In this document: one piece after another, positions 32,831 through 42,597 of the stretch
Position numbering within the stretch: position 1 is the stretch's first letter
Layout of the letters: each line of letters opens with the position of its first letter
Origin: a virus
DNA: 46,671 nt
Virus record (IMG/VR): IMGVR_UViG_3300035199_000589
Coordinates: 1 to 46,671 of that record
Direction: 5' to 3' (one strand)
Translations under genes and position numbers: made by a program
Notes under the pieces: model-generated
The model's database searches: none
The model's input: the letters and a program-made list of their open reading frames with translations, nothing else
Told to the model about the DNA's origin: nothing

Positions 32831-33684
32831 TATCAGTTATTGGAATCGGCACAGGCCCATCTGCTATTGCTGAAAAATTTGCAGCAGTTCCTCAATATGA
32901 CGTTTACGTGTTAAACGACAGGGTTTCTAGAAGCACCAAAAAGAAGCGAAAGCTAAAGTCTTTCAAAAAACCAGAAGAGTACGAAAAAAATATCCCAGAC
33001 CTAAAAACCTTTTTCAAAGAACTTCATGACCATGTACAGGTCTTCATTATGGGCACCTCTTATAGCTCGAACTATTCCCTAGGGATTCTTGAGCAGATAA
33101 AAAACAAGAAAATTGATGTTTTTTACATTAAGCCAGACATTGAACTTGTTACAGGAGAGAGGCGCCTTATTGAAAATGTTACGTTTGGGGTTCTGCAAGA
33201 ATATGCACGTTCGGGGCTCTTTAACTCGCTGACTGTGTTTTCAAATCTGCAAATTGAGAACGCACTGGGAAGCGTACCCATCAAGGGTTATCATGATACG
33301 CTTAATGGCGCCATTTTTTCAGCAGTCCATTATTTAAATTATTTTACTCATTCTGATCCTGAAATTGGCCAAGTGGCTAAGCCTGCGGAAATAAACCGCA
33401 TTCGCAGCATGGCTGCTTTAGATACTAAAAATTTAGAAGAAAAGTGGTTCTTTGAGCTTGACGTTGAGCGAGAACTGTGTTATTATTTATGTATAAATGA
33501 GCAAAGACTTGCGGGAGAAGGTACGTTGCATAGAAAGATTGTAGACATACTAAAGAAAAAGCCCTCGAATGCGTTTCGTAAAATTTCTTATGCAATTTAC
33601 GAGACACCACATAAAGATTTTGGGTATGTCGTGGCCCATACAAACACGATACAACAACAAAAAACTCTTGACAAGGTAGATTAA
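32827..33684 (+). CDS. Tubulin/FtsZ-like protein, degenerate GTPase motifs
   Basis: A 285-residue protein overlapping the polymerase gene by 4 bases (ATGA). The N-terminus MISVIGIGTGPSAIAEKF resembles the first nucleotide-binding loop of FtsZ/tubulin. The central stretch VFIMGTSYSSNYSLGILEQIKNKKIDVFYIKPD (about 72-104) follows the FtsZ plan of a loop, a helix and then a strand ending in KP. The FtsZ tubulin signature GGGTGTG is replaced by MGTSYSSNYS, so GTP hydrolysis is doubtful. A polymerisation-competent homologue such as PhuZ or TubZ is possible, but a non-filament role in replication is equally open. The fold call is inference. Confidence 0.55.
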   Translation: MISVIGIGTGPSAIAEKFAAVPQYDVYVLNDRVSRSTKKKRKLKSFKKPEEYEKNIPDLKTFFKELHDHVQVFIMGTSYSSNYSLGILEQIKNKKIDVFYIKPDIELVTGERRLIENVTFGVLQEYARSGLFNSLTVFSNLQIENALGSVPIKGYHDTLNGAIFSAVHYLNYFTHSDPEIGQVAKPAEINRIRSMAALDTKNLEEKWFFELDVERELCYYLCINEQRLAGEGTLHRKIVDILKKKPSNAFRKISYAIYETPHKDFGYVVAHTNTIQQQKTLDKVD

Positions 33685-33696
33685 GAGTATTATATT
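33668..33696 (+). promoter_or_regulatory. Sigma70-type promoter for the SSB gene
   Basis: TTGACA (33668-33673), a 17-base spacer and TATATT (33691-33696) make a near-consensus promoter overlapping the end of the upstream gene. Transcription would start near 33703, giving a leader of about 53 bases for the SSB gene. Confidence 0.83.
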
Positions 33697-33698
33697 AG

Positions 33699-33719
33699 AT
33701 ATCAAGGAACGCTTGATAT
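33699..33719 (+). promoter_or_regulatory. Perfect dyad at the SSB transcription start
   Basis: ATATCAAG, spacer GAACG, CTTGATAT is an 8-bp perfect inverted repeat 2 bases downstream of the -10 box, spanning the predicted start. It could be an operator or a 5' RNA hairpin. It is followed by an unstructured A/C-rich leader up to the SD AAGGAG. Confidence 0.6.
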
Positions 33720-33755
33720 ACTTTAACCATAACAACAAAAAAAAGGAGACAAAAT

Positions 33756-34523
33756 ATGTCAATTAATATGGAACTAATGAGAAAGAAGCTCGCCACTTTA
33801 CGTGGTGAGGGAGAGGGTAGAGAGAATTCGCCCTGGTTTAAGCCCGATGAAGGGGACCAGGATATCCGGATTGTTCCTGCCCCTGACGGCGATCCCCTAA
33901 AGGAGATGTATTTCCACTATAACGTTGGAGATCATCGCGGCGGAATCGTTTGTCCAAAGCGCAATTTCGGTGATCCGTGTCCAATCTGTGAATTTGCTTC
34001 TTCCTTATGGAAGGAAGGAGTTTCCAGCAACGATGAAGAGAGCAAGAAGCTCGCTAAGTCACTATTCGTTCGTGCGCGATTCTTCTCACCTGTAGTGGTG
34101 CGAGGTCGCGAAGATGAAGGAATTAAGTACTATGGGTACGGAAAGCGCGCCTATGAGAACCTGCTGGGCTATATTCTAGACCCGGATTATGGTGATATCA
34201 CCGACACCCTTGAGGGCACCGATATCGCCCTCACATACACCAAGCCAACAGCGCCTGGTGCATACCCGCAGACAAGCCTAAAGATGCGTCGGAACACTTC
34301 CCCGCTTCTGGAGGATACGGAAGCTATCCCTGCCCTCCTTGATGGTATGCCTGAATTTGATGCACTATTTGAGCGTCATACTCCAGAGCAAATCGACGCC
34401 ATCCTTGATGAACAGCTTGCTGGTGATGGAAGTGCAGAGTCCCGCTCGAAGGAAACCACAAGATACAGCAATGGCAAAAATGATGTGGACCGAGCGTTCG
34501 ATGAACTGATGGCCACCAAGTAA
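33756..34523 (+). CDS. Single-stranded DNA-binding protein (gp32-like)
   Basis: This protein coats single-stranded DNA in replication, recombination and repair. The 255 residues begin with a basic, helical N-terminus (MSINMELMRKKLATLRGEG), which in gp32 mediates cooperativity. The core has SPWFKP, IRIVPAPDGDP and the zinc-binding region with CPKRNFGDPCPICEFA (about 68-83). The C-terminal part has an Asp/Glu-rich segment (about 205-235) for partner contacts. T4 gp32 is 301 residues. It is followed by a hairpin with a T-tract. The promoter, dyad and A-rich leader upstream suggest autoregulation as for T4 gp32. Confidence 0.9.
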   Translation: MSINMELMRKKLATLRGEGEGRENSPWFKPDEGDQDIRIVPAPDGDPLKEMYFHYNVGDHRGGIVCPKRNFGDPCPICEFASSLWKEGVSSNDEESKKLAKSLFVRARFFSPVVVRGREDEGIKYYGYGKRAYENLLGYILDPDYGDITDTLEGTDIALTYTKPTAPGAYPQTSLKMRRNTSPLLEDTEAIPALLDGMPEFDALFERHTPEQIDAILDEQLAGDGSAESRSKETTRYSNGKNDVDRAFDELMATK

Positions 34524-34541
34524 GGCTTGCATGAGGCCGCT

Positions 34542-34577
34542 GGCACCCCGGCCGGAAGAATAGGGTGCCGCATTTTT
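34542..34577 (+). terminator. Putative terminator after the SSB gene
   Basis: GGCACCC (34542-34548) and GGGTGCC (34563-34569) form a 7-bp stem around a GC-rich loop, followed by GCATTTTTAAT. It separates the SSB gene from the nuclease-methyltransferase pair, which has no promoter that I can see in this gap. Confidence 0.65.
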
Positions 34578-34600
34578 AATAATTAATGTTCGGAGGGAAC

Positions 34601-35080
34601 ATGGATAAACATAATGGTGCTCGTAATGGTCTTAAGGGCGAGCGCATACTGCGAGAGGCACTTGATAGTCACGGACTTTCTTTGTGGAAAGTAATGGAAG
34701 ATTTTAAGGGGTCTGAATTTTCTTACGATGGAACGGTGAGGTTTGACTCACCTTATGACGATGGTAGCTTTAGTTCGGACGGATTCATCCCTGAGCTGCA
34801 GCGCATCGTCGAAATTAAATATGGCGAGAAGCACGGTACAACCGAAGAGAAGGTCATGGTCGATCTTGAGAAGATTCGTGATGATGTCTATGGCTCAGAG
34901 TATCCACTAGTATATTTCTTTTGGGGAACACCAGAGGTGCCCGGAACAAAAACGACCGGTCGCTGTTGGGCAAATGTTTTTCGAGACAAAGTAGAGAAAG
35001 AAGGTCTACCTGTTGAAGTGGTTTTTGCAACCACGAATGGTGGCTTCGACAAATGGGTTAAAGAGGCTCTTCAACAATGA
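34601..35080 (+). CDS. PD-(D/E)XK-type nuclease, putative restriction endonuclease
   Basis: A 159-residue protein. The start is placed at 34601 because GGAGGG (34592-34597) directly precedes it; the upstream in-frame ATG at 34586 has no SD. The sequence SSDGFIPELQRIVEIKYG gives Asp60, then Glu71-x-Lys73, the PD-(D/E)XK metal-binding arrangement, with a conserved-looking helix containing Glu14 before it. The fold family includes many type II restriction enzymes. The ORF overlaps the following methyltransferase by 4 bases (ATGA), suggesting a co-translated restriction-modification pair. Other options are a host-DNA-degrading nuclease or a Holliday-junction-type enzyme. Specificity cannot be read from the sequence. 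Confidence 0.66.
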   Translation: MDKHNGARNGLKGERILREALDSHGLSLWKVMEDFKGSEFSYDGTVRFDSPYDDGSFSSDGFIPELQRIVEIKYGEKHGTTEEKVMVDLEKIRDDVYGSEYPLVYFFWGTPEVPGTKTTGRCWANVFRDKVEKEGLPVEVVFATTNGGFDKWVKEALQQ

Positions 35081-36138
35081 CAACCAAAATCGAAACTAAG
35101 GGCGTCCGGTATCTCGGAAGCAAGAACAAGTTAGTACCATTAATCACGGAAGTGATCGAGAGCCTGGACACAGAAGAGAAAACACTCATCGATGTGTTCA
35201 CGGGTACCACCCGAGTAGCGCAAGCGTTTAAGTCGCTTGGTTATGAAGTTACCACTAGTGACTTATCTTGGGCGTCGGAGACTTATAGTCATGCCATGGT
35301 ATGCAACGACGGCAACATTGGACACCTACAGCCATATATTAATGAGCTTAATACAATTGAGTCGTCACCAGGCTGGCTAACAAACAATTATTGTGATGCG
35401 CTAAATGAAGTCGGGGACCTCATTCAAGTGTGGAAGAAGCACAATGGAGCGAAGGCAGACGCGATCCGAGACAAGATCGAAGAATATGATTTGTCTCATG
35501 GCGATAAGATGACACTTGTTGCATCGCTTATTTTTGCGCTAGACAAAGTTGATAACACAGTCGGACTACAACAGGCCTACCTTAAGGGGTGGAAGTCTCC
35601 TCGCGTTGACACAAAACTTGAACTCAAGTTGTTACCATCGTACGCAGGCCCTGCTGGTACACATATTGTTGGGGACGCACTTAAGATCGACTACCCAAAG
35701 GCTGAGATTGCTTACTTAGATCCACCTTACACGCCGGCAGACTATTCTACTTATTACCACATTTGGGACAGTATTGCTCGCTGGGATAAGCCGGAAGTTT
35801 CACTTAAAACCAATAGGCGCCTAGACCGTATTAAGAAGAGGAAAGAAACCCACGATAAGGAAATGCTGAGCCCCTGGTATAGCAAAAAGACCGCATACGA
35901 TGCGACTTTGCGATTAGTTGATAGACTTCCTGTTCGTTATGTGGTATTCTCTTATAGTGACGAAGGACTGATAACTTTTGATCAAATGAGAGAAATGGGT
36001 GCAAAATACAAGAACTTTACCATTTATGAAAAAGAACATTCGCGCCATCTCATGAGTCGGATGGGTGCCGGCGGGAAAGAAGCAAAAAACGCCGACAAAA
36101 AGAAAAACACTGAATACGTCATTGTGATAGAAAAATAG
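35077..36138 (+). CDS. DNA adenine N6-methyltransferase (D12 class)
   Basis: A 353-residue methyltransferase that transfers a methyl group from S-adenosylmethionine to adenine in DNA. The N-terminal GVRYLGSKNKLVPLI (about 9-23) and DVFTGTTRVAQAFKSLGY (about 39-56) form the cofactor site, and LDPPYTP with DPPY at 215-218 is the catalytic motif. The order is that of the D12 class (Dam, M.FokI type). The segment between them (about 65-200) would be the target-recognition domain. It overlaps the nuclease by 4 bases, so it is likely the protecting half of the pair. The C-terminus is Lys/Ala-rich. Confidence 0.86.
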   Translation: MTTKIETKGVRYLGSKNKLVPLITEVIESLDTEEKTLIDVFTGTTRVAQAFKSLGYEVTTSDLSWASETYSHAMVCNDGNIGHLQPYINELNTIESSPGWLTNNYCDALNEVGDLIQVWKKHNGAKADAIRDKIEEYDLSHGDKMTLVASLIFALDKVDNTVGLQQAYLKGWKSPRVDTKLELKLLPSYAGPAGTHIVGDALKIDYPKAEIAYLDPPYTPADYSTYYHIWDSIARWDKPEVSLKTNRRLDRIKKRKETHDKEMLSPWYSKKTAYDATLRLVDRLPVRYVVFSYSDEGLITFDQMREMGAKYKNFTIYEKEHSRHLMSRMGAGGKEAKNADKKKNTEYVIVIEK

Positions 36139-36147
36139 GAGGCATTA

Positions 36148-37275
36148 ATGGCAAGAAAAGCTAAAGAAACAAAAGCTGGCAGAGTTTCAATGCAAGATTT
36201 AATGAAGCTTGTTAACAAGAAAGCCGGCCGCAACGTAGCCCACGATCTTACCGGGGAAAACCCGACAGGCGTGAAGGAGTGGATTCCTACCGGATCCCGA
36301 TGGCTAGATAGCATCATTTGCAAAGGTCAGGCTGCGGGCATTCCCGTAGGCAAGATCACTGAACTAGCAGGCTTGCAGAGTACAGGCAAATCATACATGG
36401 CAGCACAGATTGCGGCGAATGCACAAAAGACGGGCAAACTTATTGTTTACTTTGATTCTGAGTCCGCTATTGATCCTGACTTTCTTGAGCGTGCAGGGTG
36501 TGACCTCGGTAGGCTCATGTACATTCAGGCGGCCTCTGTTGAATTCGTGCTAGAAACTGTAGAGGAACTGCTGGGAGCAGCAGATGAACAGCTTGTGTTT
36601 ATTTGGGACTCCCTTGCGTTAACTCCGTCTATCTCAGATGTTGAGGGTGACTTTAATCCACAGTCTTCAATGGCTGTGAAGGCTCGCATTCTTGCAAAAG
36701 GTATGTCGAAGCTGATTATTCCTATTGCCGATAAGCAGGCAACATTTTTGGTGCTCAACCAGCTAAAGACTAACATTCCCAGTGGTCCCAACGCACGTAT
36801 TATTGCAATGACCACCCCATACATGACGCCGGGAGGTAAAGCGATGCACTATTCGTATTCGCTGCGCATTTGGCTTACAGGAAGAAAGTCAAAAGCTGCG
36901 TTTATTGAGGATGAGAAGGGCTTCCGCATCGGGTCAGAGGTAAAAGTTAAGCTAGAGAAGTCGCGCTTTGGGACACAAGGTAGAAATTGTGTTTTCCGTA
37001 TTTTATGGGGCACCGAGGATGTAGGAATTTGCGATGAGGAGAGCTGGTTTGAGGCTATAAAAAGCTCAGATTGTCTGACAAGCGCTGGTGCTTGGTATAC
37101 ATTAACAATGCCAAGCGGCTATGCGAAAAAGTTTCAGCCATCGAAGTGGGCCGAACTAATAGCATCTGATGAAGAGTTTAAAAAGAACGTCATTGAGCTA
37201 ATGGATGAAGAGGTTGTTCAGAAGTTCCACAAGCGTGAAGGATCTGCAGAACAATTTTATTCCGATCCTGAATAA
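36148..37275 (+). CDS. uvsX: Recombinase UvsX (RecA-like)
   Basis: This strand-exchange protein drives recombination-dependent replication and repair. The 375 residues have Walker A GLQSTGKS (75-82), Walker B LVFIWDS (149-155) and the RecA-type segment LVLNQLKTNIPSGP (about 201-214), corresponding to the DNA-binding loop region. The lysine-rich N-terminal region (about 1-30) is like that of T4-like UvsX. Length is near T4 UvsX (391). The SD GGAGG lies 7 bases before the ATG. A strong promoter-hairpin follows immediately after its stop. Confidence 0.92.
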   Translation: MARKAKETKAGRVSMQDLMKLVNKKAGRNVAHDLTGENPTGVKEWIPTGSRWLDSIICKGQAAGIPVGKITELAGLQSTGKSYMAAQIAANAQKTGKLIVYFDSESAIDPDFLERAGCDLGRLMYIQAASVEFVLETVEELLGAADEQLVFIWDSLALTPSISDVEGDFNPQSSMAVKARILAKGMSKLIIPIADKQATFLVLNQLKTNIPSGPNARIIAMTTPYMTPGGKAMHYSYSLRIWLTGRKSKAAFIEDEKGFRIGSEVKVKLEKSRFGTQGRNCVFRILWGTEDVGICDEESWFEAIKSSDCLTSAGAWYTLTMPSGYAKKFQPSKWAELIASDEEFKKNVIELMDEEVVQKFHKREGSAEQFYSDPE

Positions 37276-37280
37276 AACAC

Positions 37281-37309
37281 TTGACAGCCCTCCTGTGATG
37301 CGTTATACT
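37281..37309 (+). promoter_or_regulatory. Sigma70-type promoter for the deaminase unit
   Basis: TTGACA (37281-37286), a 17-base spacer and TATACT (37304-37309) make a near-consensus promoter starting 6 bases after the uvsX stop. Transcription would start near 37316, about 20 bases before the ATG at 37336. Confidence 0.87.
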
Positions 37310-37333
37310 TATGTATAAGCTTGTAGGAGGGCT
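37286..37333 (+). promoter_or_regulatory. Long hairpin covering promoter and ribosome-binding site
   Basis: GCCCTCCT (37287-37294) pairs with AGGAGGGC (37325-37332), closed by A37286-T37333. The stem continues through G-U pairs and two one-base bulges to an inner TTATAC-TTAT-GTATAA hairpin (37303-37318). The 3' arm contains the SD AGGAGG. mRNA reading through from uvsX would form the full hairpin, whereas mRNA from the internal promoter starts near 37316 and lacks the 5' arm. Confidence 0.72.
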
Positions 37334-37335
37334 TC

Positions 37336-37779
37336 ATGTCATCAGTAAAGGAGTATGATTCATCCTATGGTGCTGAAAAGTTTCACAATTATTCTGGCAA
37401 GATTCGAAGATACATGGATCTAGCAAAGAGAACCGCTAGCCAGTCACTGTTTCCGGACTATCGCCATGGCGCTGTGTTGGTAAAGGGCTCATCGGTTCGT
37501 AATACATCCTTTAATAAGGATAACTACTGTGCATTTGGCACCCGTTTTCAAAAGCAGCACAACGGCAGGACTACGCTCCACGCCGAGCTTGGTGCTATTC
37601 TGGGCCTAGACCGCAATATTACAGAAGGTGCTACGGTGTATGTTGCCAGAATAGGACGAGAAGATGACTACAAGTTGTCAAAGCCTTGCCACATGTGCCA
37701 CCAAGCAATGAAGCATGTTGGCATCAAGAGAGTTGTATATACCATTAATGATAAGATAGCAGGGAGTTATAAGCTATGA
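37336..37779 (+). CDS. Cytidine/deoxycytidylate deaminase-like protein
   Basis: A 147-residue zinc deaminase-fold protein. HAE (82-84) carries the zinc ligand and catalytic Glu, and KPCHMC (Cys118 and Cys121) is the PCxxC zinc-binding motif. The likely reaction is hydrolytic deamination of dCMP or (deoxy)cytidine for dTMP supply, as by T4 gene cd, but substrate residues were not checked, so other members of the fold are possible. The SD sits in the hairpin described at 37286. The next gene overlaps by 4 bases (ATGA). Confidence 0.8.
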   Translation: MSSVKEYDSSYGAEKFHNYSGKIRRYMDLAKRTASQSLFPDYRHGAVLVKGSSVRNTSFNKDNYCAFGTRFQKQHNGRTTLHAELGAILGLDRNITEGATVYVARIGREDDYKLSKPCHMCHQAMKHVGIKRVVYTINDKIAGSYKL

Positions 37780-38237
37780 ATATATTTGTTTTACACACAG
37801 AACCAGAGAAAGCAGCCAAAATGGCCTGCGACAAGCATGTTATTAAGATGATTATAGAAACTGCACAGATGATGTGCACTGTTGTTGCATCATATGGCCA
37901 TGCCACCCCTTACCGACCTACACATGCCAAGCATCCATGTACTATTTGGGCCGGCCAGTCCAAAGCTAACTGGGATTGGCTCGTCGAATATGGAATGGGG
38001 CTATGTGAAGAGTATACCGAGAGATATGGCAAAACTCACAAGAGTCAGAGTGTCATCGAGTGGTGTGCAATGAAGCATATCAATCTTCCAAATATTTCAC
38101 AGACACCATTTGCACAAGCTATGCCGTCACAGTATCGAAACGAGTGTGCCGTTACTGCCTACCGCGCATATTACCATGGTGAGAAGGCTGGCTTTGCAAC
38201 TTGGAAAACCCAGACACCGGACTGGTGGAGAGCATGA
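37776..38237 (+). CDS. Conserved phage protein of unknown function
   Basis: A 153-residue protein with the N-terminal pattern MNIFVLHTEPEKAAKMACDKHVIKMIIETAQMM and a central HPCTIWAGQSKANWDWL. I recognise this as a family common in marine and T4-like phages, sometimes given DNA-repair names that I cannot support here. It is rich in Cys, His and Trp (for example KHPC about 50, WCAMKH about 92), so metal binding is possible. It overlaps the deaminase and the exonuclease by 4 bases each, so it may act in nucleotide or DNA metabolism. Confidence 0.74.
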   Translation: MNIFVLHTEPEKAAKMACDKHVIKMIIETAQMMCTVVASYGHATPYRPTHAKHPCTIWAGQSKANWDWLVEYGMGLCEEYTERYGKTHKSQSVIEWCAMKHINLPNISQTPFAQAMPSQYRNECAVTAYRAYYHGEKAGFATWKTQTPDWWRA

Positions 38238-39202
38238 ACAAAAGAGTACTGATTATTGATGCGCTCAATCTTTATCTGAGAGCATATATTATGGACCCAA
38301 GCCTGACAATGCAGGGGGAGCCTTGCGGGGGTATCAAGGGGTCCTTAAAAATTCTCCAAAAACTTGTGCGAGAATCAAAGCCAGATGAGATTGTTATTGT
38401 GTGGGATGGCCCTAATGGCTCCCGCAAGCGCAAGGCTCTCAACAAAGACTACAAGGCCGGCAGAAAGCCCATTCGCCTCAACCGCACAGTAAAAAATCTT
38501 ACAGAAGATGAGGAAATACAGAATAAGGTATGGCAGCAAATGCGCCTCATAGAATACCTTAATGAGATGCCCATCATCCAGACGATTATTCCAGAAGTAG
38601 AAGCCGATGATGTTATCTCTTATCTTACGCGAATGAGCTATTATGACGGTTGGCAGAAGGTTATCGTCTCCAACGATAAAGACTTCTATCAGCTATGTGA
38701 CGAAGAAACTGTGGTATTCCGTCCCGTGAGCAAGACAGTTTATAATAAGAAGCGCATCATTGAAGAACTTGGTGTGCACCCGCGCAATATGGCGCTCGCG
38801 AGAGCGCTCGTTGGAGACGCGTCTGACAACCTACCAGGGATTAAGAGTGTTGGCTTCAAGACCATCCAAAAGCGCCTAAGTTTTTTAGCATCTGACAAAG
38901 ATTATACAATAGATGACGTGATTGATTTTTGTGAAAATACGGGTTCGAAATTGAAATTTCATACAAATATTGTGGAAGGAAAAAAAATAATTGAGCACAA
39001 TTACCAAATGATGCAACTTTATTCTCCGATGATTTCTGTGCAGTCAAAAGACTTCGTTAAGAATGCTGTAGAGAACTTCGAGTGCAATTTCAACAAGATA
39101 GAGATTATGAAGAAAATGCGCGATGATGGTTTCGGAGAATTGAACTGGAAGGATCTTGAACTGCATTTAAATAAAATCAATTCTGAGTGCCGAAGTGCTT
39201 GA
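38234..39202 (+). CDS. 5'-3' exonuclease (Pol I N-terminal / FEN family)
   Basis: This enzyme removes RNA primers and flap DNA during lagging-strand synthesis. I place the start at 38234, not at the earlier in-frame ATG at 38201, because GGAG lies just before it and it gives the usual N-terminus MNKRVLIIDALNLYLRAY. The FEN landmarks are present: Asp9 in IIDALN, VWDGP (about 57), EADDVISYL (about 122-130), SNDKDFYQL (about 144-152) and GDASDNLPGIKSVGFKT (about 196-212). The 322 residues fit the T4 RNase H family. Together with the polymerase at 31.6 kb it makes the two halves of a split Pol I. Confidence 0.88.
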   Translation: MNKRVLIIDALNLYLRAYIMDPSLTMQGEPCGGIKGSLKILQKLVRESKPDEIVIVWDGPNGSRKRKALNKDYKAGRKPIRLNRTVKNLTEDEEIQNKVWQQMRLIEYLNEMPIIQTIIPEVEADDVISYLTRMSYYDGWQKVIVSNDKDFYQLCDEETVVFRPVSKTVYNKKRIIEELGVHPRNMALARALVGDASDNLPGIKSVGFKTIQKRLSFLASDKDYTIDDVIDFCENTGSKLKFHTNIVEGKKIIEHNYQMMQLYSPMISVQSKDFVKNAVENFECNFNKIEIMKKMRDDGFGELNWKDLELHLNKINSECRSA

Positions 39203-39226
39203 CTTTCACGACATATCGGTTATAAT
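39199..39226 (+). promoter_or_regulatory. Sigma70-type promoter for the helicase unit
   Basis: TTGACT (39199-39204), a 16-base spacer and a perfect TATAAT (39221-39226), starting at the end of the exonuclease gene. Transcription would start near 39233, with the SD GGAGG at 39239-39243. A weak pairing of GTGCTT (39195-39200) with AGGCAC (39241-39246) could partly cover the SD on read-through mRNA. Confidence 0.82.
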
Positions 39227-39251
39227 TAGTACTGTATCGGAGGCACAATAA

Positions 39252-40628
39252 TTGGCAACTCAAGCAAGTTTCAGTCGGTACGGAAAAGCATTTCAAGAGG
39301 GCCTGGTCCAACTCATTTACGAGGATAGGCCCTTTGCTGATCAGATAACTGAGGTTCTCAATACTAACTTTTTAGAGTTGGAATATCTCCGCGTATTTGT
39401 TGATAAGATTATCAACTATCGCGACAAGTACGCAACCCACCCTTCCGCAGAAGCCGTTATTACGATATTGCGTACCGCGCTCGACGAGGAAGAAGAGGTT
39501 ATACGCCAACAGGTGCGAGATTACTTTGCCAGGATCACAAGCAAAGAATTAGCGGATATTGAATATATCAAAGAACAATCACTTGATTTTTGTCGTAAGC
39601 AAAATCTTAAAGAGGCGATGCTTAAGTCCGTCGGGCTTTTGCAAACATGCTCATTTGATGAAATCTCAAAAGTTATCAATGACTCTCTAAAGTTGGGGTC
39701 CGACAATAACTTCGGTTACGACTATCTTGCAGATTTTGAACAACGATTTGTTCCAAAGCATCGTCTACCGGTTACAACAGGTTGGAAAGAGATTGACAAG
39801 ATCTGTGGTGGCGGCCTGGGAAAGAGTGAACTTGGGGTGGTGATTGCACCAACTGGCGCAGGAAAATCTTTCTGCCTTGTGCACCTTGGCGCGCAAGGAC
39901 TCAAAGAAGAAAAGGTGGTTGTTCACTACACGTTGGAGCTACAGGATACTATTATTGCAAATAGGTACGATAGTTGCTTAACAGGCTACCCTCTTTCTGA
40001 TATTATTAACTTCAAGGATGAGATTTATGAAGAGATTAAGGATATTAATGGAAAGCTAATTATTAAAGAATACCCAACCAAGTCTGCAACAACAAATACT
40101 ATAAAATCTCATTTGACCAAGTTGCTGAAAAGAGGTATTAAGCCTGGAATAATCATTGTTGACTACGCCGATCTTTTGAGGCCCATAACAGTAAGAAAGG
40201 AAAAGAGAACCGAATTGGAATCTATCTACGAAGACCTGCGCGCAATATCCACAGAGTTTGGGTGTCCAGTCTGGACCGCATCCCAAACGAATCGTTCAGG
40301 ACTGAACGCGGAAGTCATTACGATGGAGCAAATATCAGAAGCGTTTAGCAAATGTTTTGTTGCTGACTTTATTTTTTCTGTTTCTAGAACAATTGAAGAC
40401 AAGCAGAACAACCAAGGCAAAATTTTTATTGCCAAAAATAGAAATGGCCCCGATGGAATTATTTATGATATATTTATGGACCCATCAAATGCAAGTATCA
40501 AGGTGATGCCACAAACTACGACTACGATGAATGGGCCCATCCCAATGAACCCAGTGGCACTAAGTACAAGCACTCAAAGAGATTTGTTGCAAAACAAATA
40601 CGACAAATTTAGAAACAGGAAACAATAA
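39252..40628 (+). CDS. Replicative DNA helicase (gp41/DnaB-like)
   Basis: This hexameric helicase unwinds DNA at the replication fork. The start is a TTG 8 bases after GGAGG. The 458 residues contain an N-terminal helical domain (about 1-150), then GGGLGKSELGVVIAP leading into Walker A APTGAGKS (199-206), Walker B GIIIVDYADL (299-308), WTASQTNRSG (about 342) and the C-terminal FIFSVSRT region. This is the RecA-core layout of T4 gp41 (475 residues). No primase domain is fused. It is followed by the ribonucleotide reductase 1 base later. Confidence 0.9.
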   Translation: MATQASFSRYGKAFQEGLVQLIYEDRPFADQITEVLNTNFLELEYLRVFVDKIINYRDKYATHPSAEAVITILRTALDEEEEVIRQQVRDYFARITSKELADIEYIKEQSLDFCRKQNLKEAMLKSVGLLQTCSFDEISKVINDSLKLGSDNNFGYDYLADFEQRFVPKHRLPVTTGWKEIDKICGGGLGKSELGVVIAPTGAGKSFCLVHLGAQGLKEEKVVVHYTLELQDTIIANRYDSCLTGYPLSDIINFKDEIYEEIKDINGKLIIKEYPTKSATTNTIKSHLTKLLKRGIKPGIIIVDYADLLRPITVRKEKRTELESIYEDLRAISTEFGCPVWTASQTNRSGLNAEVITMEQISEAFSKCFVADFIFSVSRTIEDKQNNQGKIFIAKNRNGPDGIIYDIFMDPSNASIKVMPQTTTTMNGPIPMNPVALSTSTQRDLLQNKYDKFRNRKQ

Positions 40629-40629
40629 A

Positions 40630-42597
40630 ATGAGAACAATTGAGAATATTCGCAGATTTAGATTATCAGATACATTTATCGAACCTTACAAAGAGGCAAA
40701 AGTGCCATGGGGACCTATAGGGTATATCACCTTTAAGCGTACCTATTCGCGACGATTATCTGAGTTTGACCCCGCGGCAACTGGCACCGAAGAGTGGTGG
40801 CAGAGCTGTAGACGCGTTGTAGAAGGGATGTTTAACGTCCAGAAGGAACATGTTGTGCGCCTGGGTCTTGAGTGGAACGATGGAAAAGCACAGCAGACCG
40901 CGAAAGATGCTTACGACCGCCTTTTTAATCTTAAGTGGACCCCGCCTGGCCGCGGCCTGTGGATGATGGGTACAAAGTTTGTCGAAGAAAAGACAGGTGC
41001 GGCCCTCTTTAACTGCGCATTTCGAAGCACAAAAGAACTAGCGACAAAGGGAGGCTATCTCTTTGCGTGGATGATGGATGCTTTGATGCTTGGTGTGGGG
41101 GTGGGTTTTGATACACTTGGCGCCGGGACGGTCACCATTAAGGAGCCCGAATATACAGGGGATACTTTAATTATTGATGATTCCCGCGAAGGCTGGGTGA
41201 ACTCAGTCCACAGTTTGCTGGATGGATTTTTCCTGGGACACAAGGTACCGAAGTTTGACTACTCTGCAATTCGCCCTGCCGGCGCAAAGATTAACGGCTT
41301 TGGGGGTACCTCCAGTGGCGCTGGTCCGCTAAAGGAACTCCACAAAGATTTAACAGAGCTATTCTCTTCAAAAATTGGAGAACCCATTACGTCTGTTGAT
41401 ATTGTAGACACAGAAAATCTTATTGGCCGCTGTGTTGTGGCAGGAAATGTTCGCCGTTCGGCCGCTCTTGCTATGGGTGAATACGATGATAAAAGATATT
41501 TGGAAATGAAGAACGACCAAGAGAAACTTTACCACCACCGATGGGGATCCAACAACTCTTTCAATGCCGAGGTTGGCATGGATTACACGTGGCACGCAGA
41601 ACAAAGCAAGACCAATGGCGAGCCTGGATATATTTGGCTTCAAAATGCTAAGACTCGTGGCCGCTTTAAGGACGATGAGCGGTTTGATGATATTAATGTG
41701 GCCGGCTTTAATCCCTGCGTGGAACAGCAACTGCATGATGGAGAGTGTTGCTGCTTGGTTGAAACATTTCCTGCAAAGCATGATAGTTATGAAGATTATT
41801 TGAAAACTCTAAAGTGTGCGTATCTTTACGGGAAGACGGTTACCTTGGTAAATACGCATTGGCCAGAAACGAACGCCATGATGTTAAAGAATCGTCGTAT
41901 TGGCCTCTCACAGTCAGGTATTGTGCAGGCATTTAATAAGCACGGCCGCCGCACCATGTTGAATTGGTGTGACAAGGCATATGATCATATTCAACAACTT
42001 GATAAAGAATACTCCGATTGGCTATGCGTGCCAAAGTCAATTCGGACGACTTCTATCAAGCCAAGTGGTACGGTATCTCTTTTAAACGGCTCTACCCCTG
42101 GAATTCATTTCCCGGAAGACGAGTACTATATTCGTCGAATTAGATTTTCAAGTGATTCTAAGTTGCTTGATAGTATTCGAAAGGCCGGATACGTTGTGGA
42201 AAAAGACGAATATTCGCCCAATACAGTTTGTGTAGAATTTCCTGTGCATGAGCCCTACTTTCAAAAAGGAAAGAGAGATGTATCGATGTGGGAGCAGCTT
42301 GAGATAGCTGCGCAGTATCAATATTACTGGGCAGACAATGCAGTATCAGTAACCGTAACGTTCAGGGAAGAGGAAGCACCCCAGCTAAAGAGTGCGCTAG
42401 AGATGTATGAAACACGACTAAAAGCAGTGTCGTTTTTGAAATACCAGAAGACAGGATATAAACAGGCGCCATATGAGCCGATCACCAAGAAGGAATATGA
42501 AAAGAGAATAAAGAATGTTACGCCAATCCAGAGAATTAAAACAAATGTTGCTGGGGCGGGCACGAGATTTTGCGATGGAGAGAGTTGTGAACTTTAA
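40630..42597 (+). CDS. Class II (B12-dependent) ribonucleotide reductase
   Basis: The enzyme reduces ribonucleotides to deoxyribonucleotides for phage DNA synthesis with adenosylcobalamin as radical source. The 655-residue monomer carries the expected residues: Cys129 in LFNCAF, Cys363 and Glu365 in NPCVE, Cys374 eleven residues later, and a C-terminal redox pair RFCDGESCEL (Cys648 and Cys653, the CxxxxC of Lactobacillus leichmannii-type enzymes). T4 has a class I enzyme (nrdA, nrdB) instead. The next gene in another frame overlaps its end if the upstream start is used. The SD is weak, and the gene is probably translated with the helicase. Confidence 0.92.
   Translation: MRTIENIRRFRLSDTFIEPYKEAKVPWGPIGYITFKRTYSRRLSEFDPAATGTEEWWQSCRRVVEGMFNVQKEHVVRLGLEWNDGKAQQTAKDAYDRLFNLKWTPPGRGLWMMGTKFVEEKTGAALFNCAFRSTKELATKGGYLFAWMMDALMLGVGVGFDTLGAGTVTIKEPEYTGDTLIIDDSREGWVNSVHSLLDGFFLGHKVPKFDYSAIRPAGAKINGFGGTSSGAGPLKELHKDLTELFSSKIGEPITSVDIVDTENLIGRCVVAGNVRRSAALAMGEYDDKRYLEMKNDQEKLYHHRWGSNNSFNAEVGMDYTWHAEQSKTNGEPGYIWLQNAKTRGRFKDDERFDDINVAGFNPCVEQQLHDGECCCLVETFPAKHDSYEDYLKTLKCAYLYGKTVTLVNTHWPETNAMMLKNRRIGLSQSGIVQAFNKHGRRTMLNWCDKAYDHIQQLDKEYSDWLCVPKSIRTTSIKPSGTVSLLNGSTPGIHFPEDEYYIRRIRFSSDSKLLDSIRKAGYVVEKDEYSPNTVCVEFPVHEPYFQKGKRDVSMWEQLEIAAQYQYYWADNAVSVTVTFREEEAPQLKSALEMYETRLKAVSFLKYQKTGYKQAPYEPITKKEYEKRIKNVTPIQRIKTNVAGAGTRFCDGESCEL

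What the first reader, a model, noticed from the sequence alone, without database searches (positions are those of the whole stretch)
37281..37335. Promoter inside a hairpin that hides the deaminase ribosome-binding site
A sigma70 promoter (TTGACA-17-TATACT) sits inside an almost continuous hairpin from 37286 to 37333. The outer stem GCCCTCCT/AGGAGGGC contains the SD in its 3' arm, and the inner stem TTATAC/GTATAA overlaps the -10 box. mRNA reading through from uvsX would fold the whole hairpin and block translation. mRNA starting near 37316 lacks the 5' arm and leaves the SD free. This is the logic known for T4 gene e (lysozyme), where early transcripts are silent and late ones translated. 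It would make the deaminase, and genes coupled to it, depend on a specific promoter, a timing switch in 55 bases.
Basis: partly seen in the sequence, partly recalled or inferred. Interest (0 to 1): 0.78.

Follow-up and report, generated by a model that had tools for sequence, protein, structure and literature searches.

The report
Hairpin lock with a built-in promoter
At the end of its recombinase gene, a marine virus of bacteria carries a 50-base RNA hairpin that should switch off the next genes in any message running in from upstream, while a promoter buried inside the same hairpin can start a fresh, unlocked message; relatives keep the design, some of them as a transcription stop signal.

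Summary
TTGACA-17-TATACT (37281-37309) lies inside a hairpin (37286-37333) whose 3' arm is the Shine-Dalgarno (SD) of a dCMP-deaminase-like gene. Predicted energy to open the SD is 14.7-17.0 kcal/mol in read-through RNA and 4-6 in RNA starting near 37316. T4 gene e, run as a control, gave 12-14 against 4-5.
I compared 123 distinct uvsX 3' junctions. Of 88 with a TTGAC promoter, 65 have a read-through hairpin at z < -2. A sister clade has the same layout as a textbook intrinsic terminator (T-run after the stem) with the promoter's -10 box in the loop. Its 12-pair stem covaries strongly. In six relatives the SD lies outside the hairpin.
The element is best read as a read-through barrier with a built-in restart promoter: an SD lock in the window, a terminator in the sister clade. 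The "timing switch" is unsupported, because this promoter and the upstream one are both sigma70-type. No transcript was measured.

The parts
36148..37275 (+). uvsX-like recombinase gene; upstream gene whose read-through transcript would carry the hairpin
   Evidence: Pfam RecA 1.5e-32; PHROG UvsX-like recombinase 5.4e-58
37281..37286 (+). -35 box TTGACA
   Evidence: TTGAC invariant in both element alignments
37287..37296 (+). 5' arm of outer stem (GCCCTCCTGT), within the promoter spacer
   Evidence: folds; transcripts that start at or after 37291 no longer mask the SD strongly
37303..37318 (+). inner stem TTATAC/GTATAA with TTAT loop
   Evidence: fold
37304..37309 (+). -10 box TATACT, in the inner stem and loop of the hairpin
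   Evidence: spacing to -35 is 17 in nearly all relatives
37316..37317 (+). predicted transcription start, 7-8 nt after the -10 box
   Evidence: inference from promoter geometry; not measured
37323..37333 (+). 3' arm of outer stem, containing the Shine-Dalgarno AGGAGG 37325-37330
37333..37335 (+). short T-rich tail after the stem (TTC); possibly a remnant or weak form of the U-tract seen in relatives
   Evidence: terminator score d = -6.8; element SD-start spacers 62% T and 4% A, other SD spacers in the same genomes 23-35% T and 29-35% A
37336..37779 (+). dCMP-deaminase-like gene, first gene behind the lock
   Evidence: Pfam PF00383 1.6e-11; PHROG dCMP deaminase 4.3e-21
37776..38237 (+). PF03013 pyrimidine-dimer-glycosylase-like gene, ATGA overlap with the deaminase gene
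38234..39202 (+). 5'-3' exonuclease-like gene, ATGA overlap with the previous gene; in several relatives it follows the element directly

Best explanation
The element is a read-through barrier with a built-in restart promoter at the uvsX boundary. RNA polymerase coming from uvsX copies the whole inverted repeat; the RNA folds and pairs the deaminase SD into the 3' arm, so read-through RNA is translated poorly or not at all at the deaminase, and the genes overlapping it by ATGA may suffer with it. A polymerase that starts at the embedded sigma70-type promoter omits the 5' arm, so its roughly 20-nt leader leaves the SD mostly free. In the window the main effect is most likely this SD lock, perhaps with weak termination; in sister lineages the same layout carries a T-run and acts as an intrinsic terminator. 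Shown: sequence anatomy, predicted folds, conservation across relatives, stem covariation in the terminator-type lineages. Inferred: the start site, the size of the translation effect, and that the purpose is to uncouple the downstream genes from uvsX transcription and not to time them.
For: SD opening energy 14.7-17.0 (read-through) against 4-6 kcal/mol (start 37314-37318); masking vanishes as soon as RNA starts at or after 37291. T4 gene e, same calculation: 12-14 for RNA from upstream of its late promoters, 4-5 for RNA starting 20-25 nt before the ATG, also with the promoter inside the hairpin. At this junction 65 of 88 promoter-bearing relatives have z < -2 against shuffled spacer, and 50 of 62 hairpin-type members have a read-through minus native difference of at least 5 kcal/mol, against 0 of 20 members without a hairpin. 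The same element stands before different genes: deaminase, exonuclease, MRNYGYACIN protein, PF03013-type protein. Terminator-type relatives: 92.9% of cells paired, 48 double-change cells against 13.6 in shuffles (0/500), and collapse when slid by 1-3 columns. In the five of seven genome sets where it forms a hairpin, the element has the most stable promoter-enclosing duplex.
Against: In the window's clade the SD arm is invariant, so pairing has no real covariation support (70.6% paired against 68.5% in shuffles; 7 double-change cells against 4.5), and RNAalifold finds no consensus structure for that set. At least seven lineages with the same or a near-identical SD arm have lost the masking stem. 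The native transcript itself keeps some SD structure (4-6 kcal/mol). No RNA data; host unknown, so sigma70 recognition is assumed. Energies ignore co-transcriptional folding and ribosomes.
Confidence: 0.62

Rival explanations
1. Intrinsic terminator with a nested promoter: the hairpin's main job, in the window too, is to end the uvsX transcript, and the SD in the 3' arm is incidental.
For: Sister clade and L209, L212, L228 have terminator scores d of +20 to +48 with T-runs right after the stem; six relatives have the SD outside the hairpin (L146, L147, L157, L158, L212, L228); SD-start spacers of the element are 62% T and 4% A against 23-35% T elsewhere; window-clade members L013 and L014 score +16 to +20.
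Against: Window score d = -6.8 with a TTC tail before ATG; most of its clade lies between -22 and +5. The stem is longer than typical terminator stems. A canonical AGGAGG with tight spacing is kept almost invariant in that clade.
Confidence: 0.22
2. Palindromic operator: the inverted repeat is a double-stranded binding site for a phage or host regulator of the embedded promoter.
For: The repeat overlaps -35 to SD; some lineages without SD masking have a compact dyad between -35 and -10 (L010, L026, L093, L129, L133).
Against: Arm sequences are replaced outright (CCCCATCCA/TGGATGGGG in L212; GCCCTTC/GGAAGGGC in L080 and L082), the arms shift by about 3 nt relative to the -10 box (L043, L135, sister clade), and the gap between arms varies; compensatory changes follow pairing, not a fixed motif.
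Confidence: 0.06
3. 3'-end or processing hairpin: the stem protects uvsX mRNA from 3' exonucleases or is cut by RNase III, separating the two messages.
For: Long, almost continuous stem beginning about 11 nt after the uvsX stop codon.
Against: Does not explain why the promoter lies inside the stem with fixed 17-bp spacing or why the SD is in the arm; no such hairpin was seen by eye at junctions without the promoter, though those were not folded.
Confidence: 0.05
4. Unselected coincidence: a strong promoter next to a strong SD, with pairing by composition.
For: Pairing lost in several lineages; no covariation in the window's clade; randomised windows give about 0.45 comparable weak sites.
Against: 65 of 88 junctions at z < -2 against spacer shuffles and strong covariation in the element at the same place in the sister clade.
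Confidence: 0.05

Closest known systems
T4 gene e (lysozyme) leader, and the soc, 49, I-TevI, I-TevII, I-TevIII, segB and Aeh1 mobE leaders (PMC3014915, PMC2988022)
   Same: Read-through RNA sequesters the SD; a promoter inside the region coding for the 5' strand gives RNA without it. Opening energies of the T4 e control are nearly equal to the window's.
   Different: T4 e uses late promoters (TATAAATA, no -35), with early/late timing shown by experiment. Here the promoter is a full sigma70 -35/-10 with the 5' arm in its spacer, there is no evidence of timing, the element sits at one genomic junction before many different genes, and sister lineages carry the hairpin as a terminator.
Rho-independent terminators close to promoters (terminator-promoter proximity and RNA polymerase recycling, PMC6978380, PMC11347151)
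   Same: Sister-clade elements have a GC stem plus T-run with a promoter close by; recycled polymerase could restart there.
   Different: Here the promoter's -10 box lies in the hairpin loop and the 5' arm in the -35/-10 spacer, not merely near it; the window's own element has a poor U-tract.
Mycobacteriophage cluster K start-associated sequences (SAS/ESAS, PMC3203893)
   Same: SD-containing short motif before start codons, some with upstream inverted repeats.
   Different: SAS/ESAS recur through the genome as a conserved sequence with the repeats upstream of the SD motif; here there is one locus, the SD is itself one arm, and in terminator-type relatives the sequence changes freely if pairing is kept.

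Membership tests
T4 gene e-type SD-sequestering leader with internal promoter | SD paired in read-through RNA | tested here: met
   mean unpaired probability 0.00, opening 14.7-17.0 kcal/mol, by prediction
T4 gene e-type SD-sequestering leader with internal promoter | Promoter located so that its transcript lacks the 5' arm | tested here: met
   -10 box 37304-37309, predicted start about 37316, downstream of the 5' arm; opening falls to 4-6 kcal/mol
T4 gene e-type SD-sequestering leader with internal promoter | Two transcript classes from different promoters, produced at different times | not testable with these tools
   No transcript data; both promoters look sigma70-type
T4 gene e-type SD-sequestering leader with internal promoter | T4-type late promoter TATAAATA | tested here: not met
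   TTGACA-17-TATACT instead
T4 gene e-type SD-sequestering leader with internal promoter | Pairing kept in relatives | tested here: inconclusive
   Kept in most window-clade relatives, lost in at least seven, SD arm invariant so no covariation
Rho-independent terminator | GC-rich stem followed directly by a U-tract, d score above 0 | tested here: not met
   Window d = -6.8; met in sister clade, d about +20 to +48
Rho-independent terminator | Measured 3' ends at the element | not testable with these tools
   No Term-seq data
Described RNA families (Rfam 15) | Match at gathering score | tested here: not met
   No match in 33000-41000

The most novel reading that the evidence does not exclude
A dual-use boundary element: one 50-bp inverted repeat that ends (or, when read through, translationally silences) the upstream message and, from a promoter whose -10 box is inside the same hairpin, starts the next one, possibly re-using the polymerase it has just stopped. 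Lineages have moved between the terminator form and the SD-lock form while keeping the promoter, and the element serves as a fixed control site behind which cargo genes are swapped.
Probability: 0.35. Interest if true: 0.72.

Novelty: new variant of a known kind. Interest (0 to 1): 0.56.

Why it matters
It would put termination or translational silencing and initiation in one short stretch, and relatives show both outcomes of the same layout, with compensatory changes in the terminator form. It extends the T4 gene e logic to uncultured marine phages with a sigma70-type promoter, and gives a compact part that could be tested as an insulator between neighbouring genes. It also marks the uvsX 3' junction as a place where repair and nucleotide genes are exchanged behind a constant control element.

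Tried and rejected
Rfam search of 33-41 kb: nothing. RNAalifold on the 34 window-type elements gave no consensus structure, because several rows have unrelated 5' arms and the SD arm is invariant; I therefore do not claim covariation for that clade. A genome pattern search with a minimum gap of 10 nt between -10 and GGAGGG found nothing, even where the element is known, because that gap is 9 in that clade; replaced by a duplex scan. I asked whether the spacer dyads of L010, L026, L093, L129 and L133 are short terminators: scores of -5 to -25 say no, and their role is unexplained. Two genome-fetch runs failed on region length and were repeated. Paper searches for a promoter nested in a terminator found only terminator-promoter proximity work; a rare phrase in unheld journals could have been missed. 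IS10 fold-back inhibition was considered as a parallel from memory; the held papers gave no usable text, so it is not used as evidence.

Full report
What is there. The sequence is as described: uvsX-like gene ending at 37275, TTGACA at 37281, 17-nt spacer GCCCTCCTGTGATGCGT, TATACT at 37304-37309, then TATGTATAAGCTTGTAGGAGGGCTTC and the ATG of a dCMP-deaminase-like gene at 37336. The spacer pairs with the Shine-Dalgarno (SD) arm. The 91-nt fold is -29.4 kcal/mol, z -3.6; with only the spacer shuffled, z is -3.4. RNA from 37316 has no significant structure. Deaminase, PF03013-type glycosylase and 5'-3' exonuclease genes overlap by ATGA, so they could be affected together.

SD accessibility. Opening AGGAGG costs 14.7-17.0 kcal/mol in read-through RNA and 4-6 in RNA starting at 37314-37318; the change comes sharply when the 5' end passes 37291. 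As a positive control I ran the T4 gene e leader, where a 100-fold translation effect is reported (PMC3014915): 12-14 kcal/mol for long RNA and 4-5 for RNA starting 20-25 nt before the ATG, with the late promoters inside the hairpin.

Relatives. Six viral-contig scans gave uvsX and element relatives. I extracted 123 distinct uvsX 3' junctions; 88 have a TTGAC promoter directly after uvsX, almost always with 17-bp spacing. 65 of 88 read-through folds have z below -2 against spacer shuffles. The element precedes different genes in different phages: deaminase, exonuclease, a MRNYGYACIN protein, a 67-aa protein, a PF03013-type protein. A search for the 3' arm alone found it downstream of uvsX in every case except one family of coding-region matches without the promoter. 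In seven related genome sets, five have a promoter-enclosing duplex of -18.8 to -26.5 at this junction and it is the strongest in the set; the other two (G008, G009) belong to lineages without the masking stem.

Two forms. The window's clade has the SD in the arm and a short T tail (terminator score -6.8 for the window, mostly -22 to +5 in the clade, up to +20 in L013 and L014). A sister clade of 21 junctions, and separately L209 and L212/L228, have the same layout with a T-run (mostly T5-T8) directly after the stem and scores of about +20 to +48, L158 with a broken run +8: textbook terminators with the -10 box in the loop. On the uvsX tree these sister-clade junctions group together and the window's clade is mostly SD-lock type, with promoter-only and no-promoter junctions scattered among them (at least 32 changes of state, so gains and losses are frequent and the direction is not known). 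In L146, L147, L157, L158, L212 and L228 the SD is outside the hairpin and the read-through/native difference is under 2.5 kcal/mol, so in those the hairpin cannot act by masking the SD, and termination is the likely role.

Is pairing selected? For the terminator-type set (20 sequences): 92.9% of cells paired, 10 of 12 pairs with two-sided changes, 48 such cells against 13.6 in shuffles (0/500), and near collapse when the register is slid by 1-3. I chose these rows because they fold, so the percentage paired is partly built in; the two-sided changes are the informative part. For the window-type set (34 sequences) there is no such support: the SD arm is invariant, paired cells are 70.6% against 68.5%, and double changes are within shuffles. 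Support there rests on spacer-shuffle z-scores, on 3-nt arm shifts that keep pairing (L043, L135), and on the element's identical position in the sister clade. At least seven lineages keep promoter and SD but not the masking; some of these have a dyad inside the spacer, which I cannot explain.

T-rich tail. SD-start spacers of the elements are 62% T and 4% A; other SD spacers in the same genomes are 23-35% T and 29-35% A. Rows are related, so this is suggestive only, but it hints that the window form is a shortened terminator or keeps some termination.

Timing. The promoter upstream of the ssb-like gene (33668) and the embedded one are both sigma70-like. Without a distinct late signal there is no basis for a timing switch; uncoupling from uvsX transcription is the more economical reading. 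In relatives without the promoter the next gene mostly starts a few bases after uvsX, as in a plain operon.

Limits. All of this is sequence and thermodynamic prediction. The host is unknown; nearest named phages are distant (about 33% protein identity for uvsX and 37-45% for the major head protein). Terminator scores use a rule derived from E. coli, recalled from the literature and coded by me. The shuffles do not remove phylogenetic relatedness.

Noticed in passing
33668-33720: Promoter TTGACA-17-TATATT before the gp32-like ssb gene, followed by a separate leader hairpin AGATATCAAG/CTTGATATACT.
   Followed up: no
37276-38237 and the uvsX 3' junctions of L009-L281: The uvsX 3' junction is a cargo hot spot: relatives carry different repair or nucleotide genes, or small histidine-rich, secreted-looking ORFs, at the same place.
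   Followed up: partly
L010, L026, L093, L129, L133 (element spacer): Lineages with little or no SD masking have a compact GC dyad between -35 and -10; scores argue against short terminators; role unknown.
   Followed up: partly
37776-37779 and 38234-38237: ATGA overlaps chain the deaminase, PF03013-type glycosylase and exonuclease genes.
   Followed up: no
39199-39226: Another good promoter (TTGACT-16-TATAAT) at the end of the exonuclease gene, just before the DnaB-like helicase gene; no comparable SD-masking hairpin was seen there.
   Followed up: no
L175, L185, L189, L199 (uvsX 3' junctions): Junctions with the promoter but no hairpin and a different SD region, showing that the promoter can persist without the lock.
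   Followed up: partly
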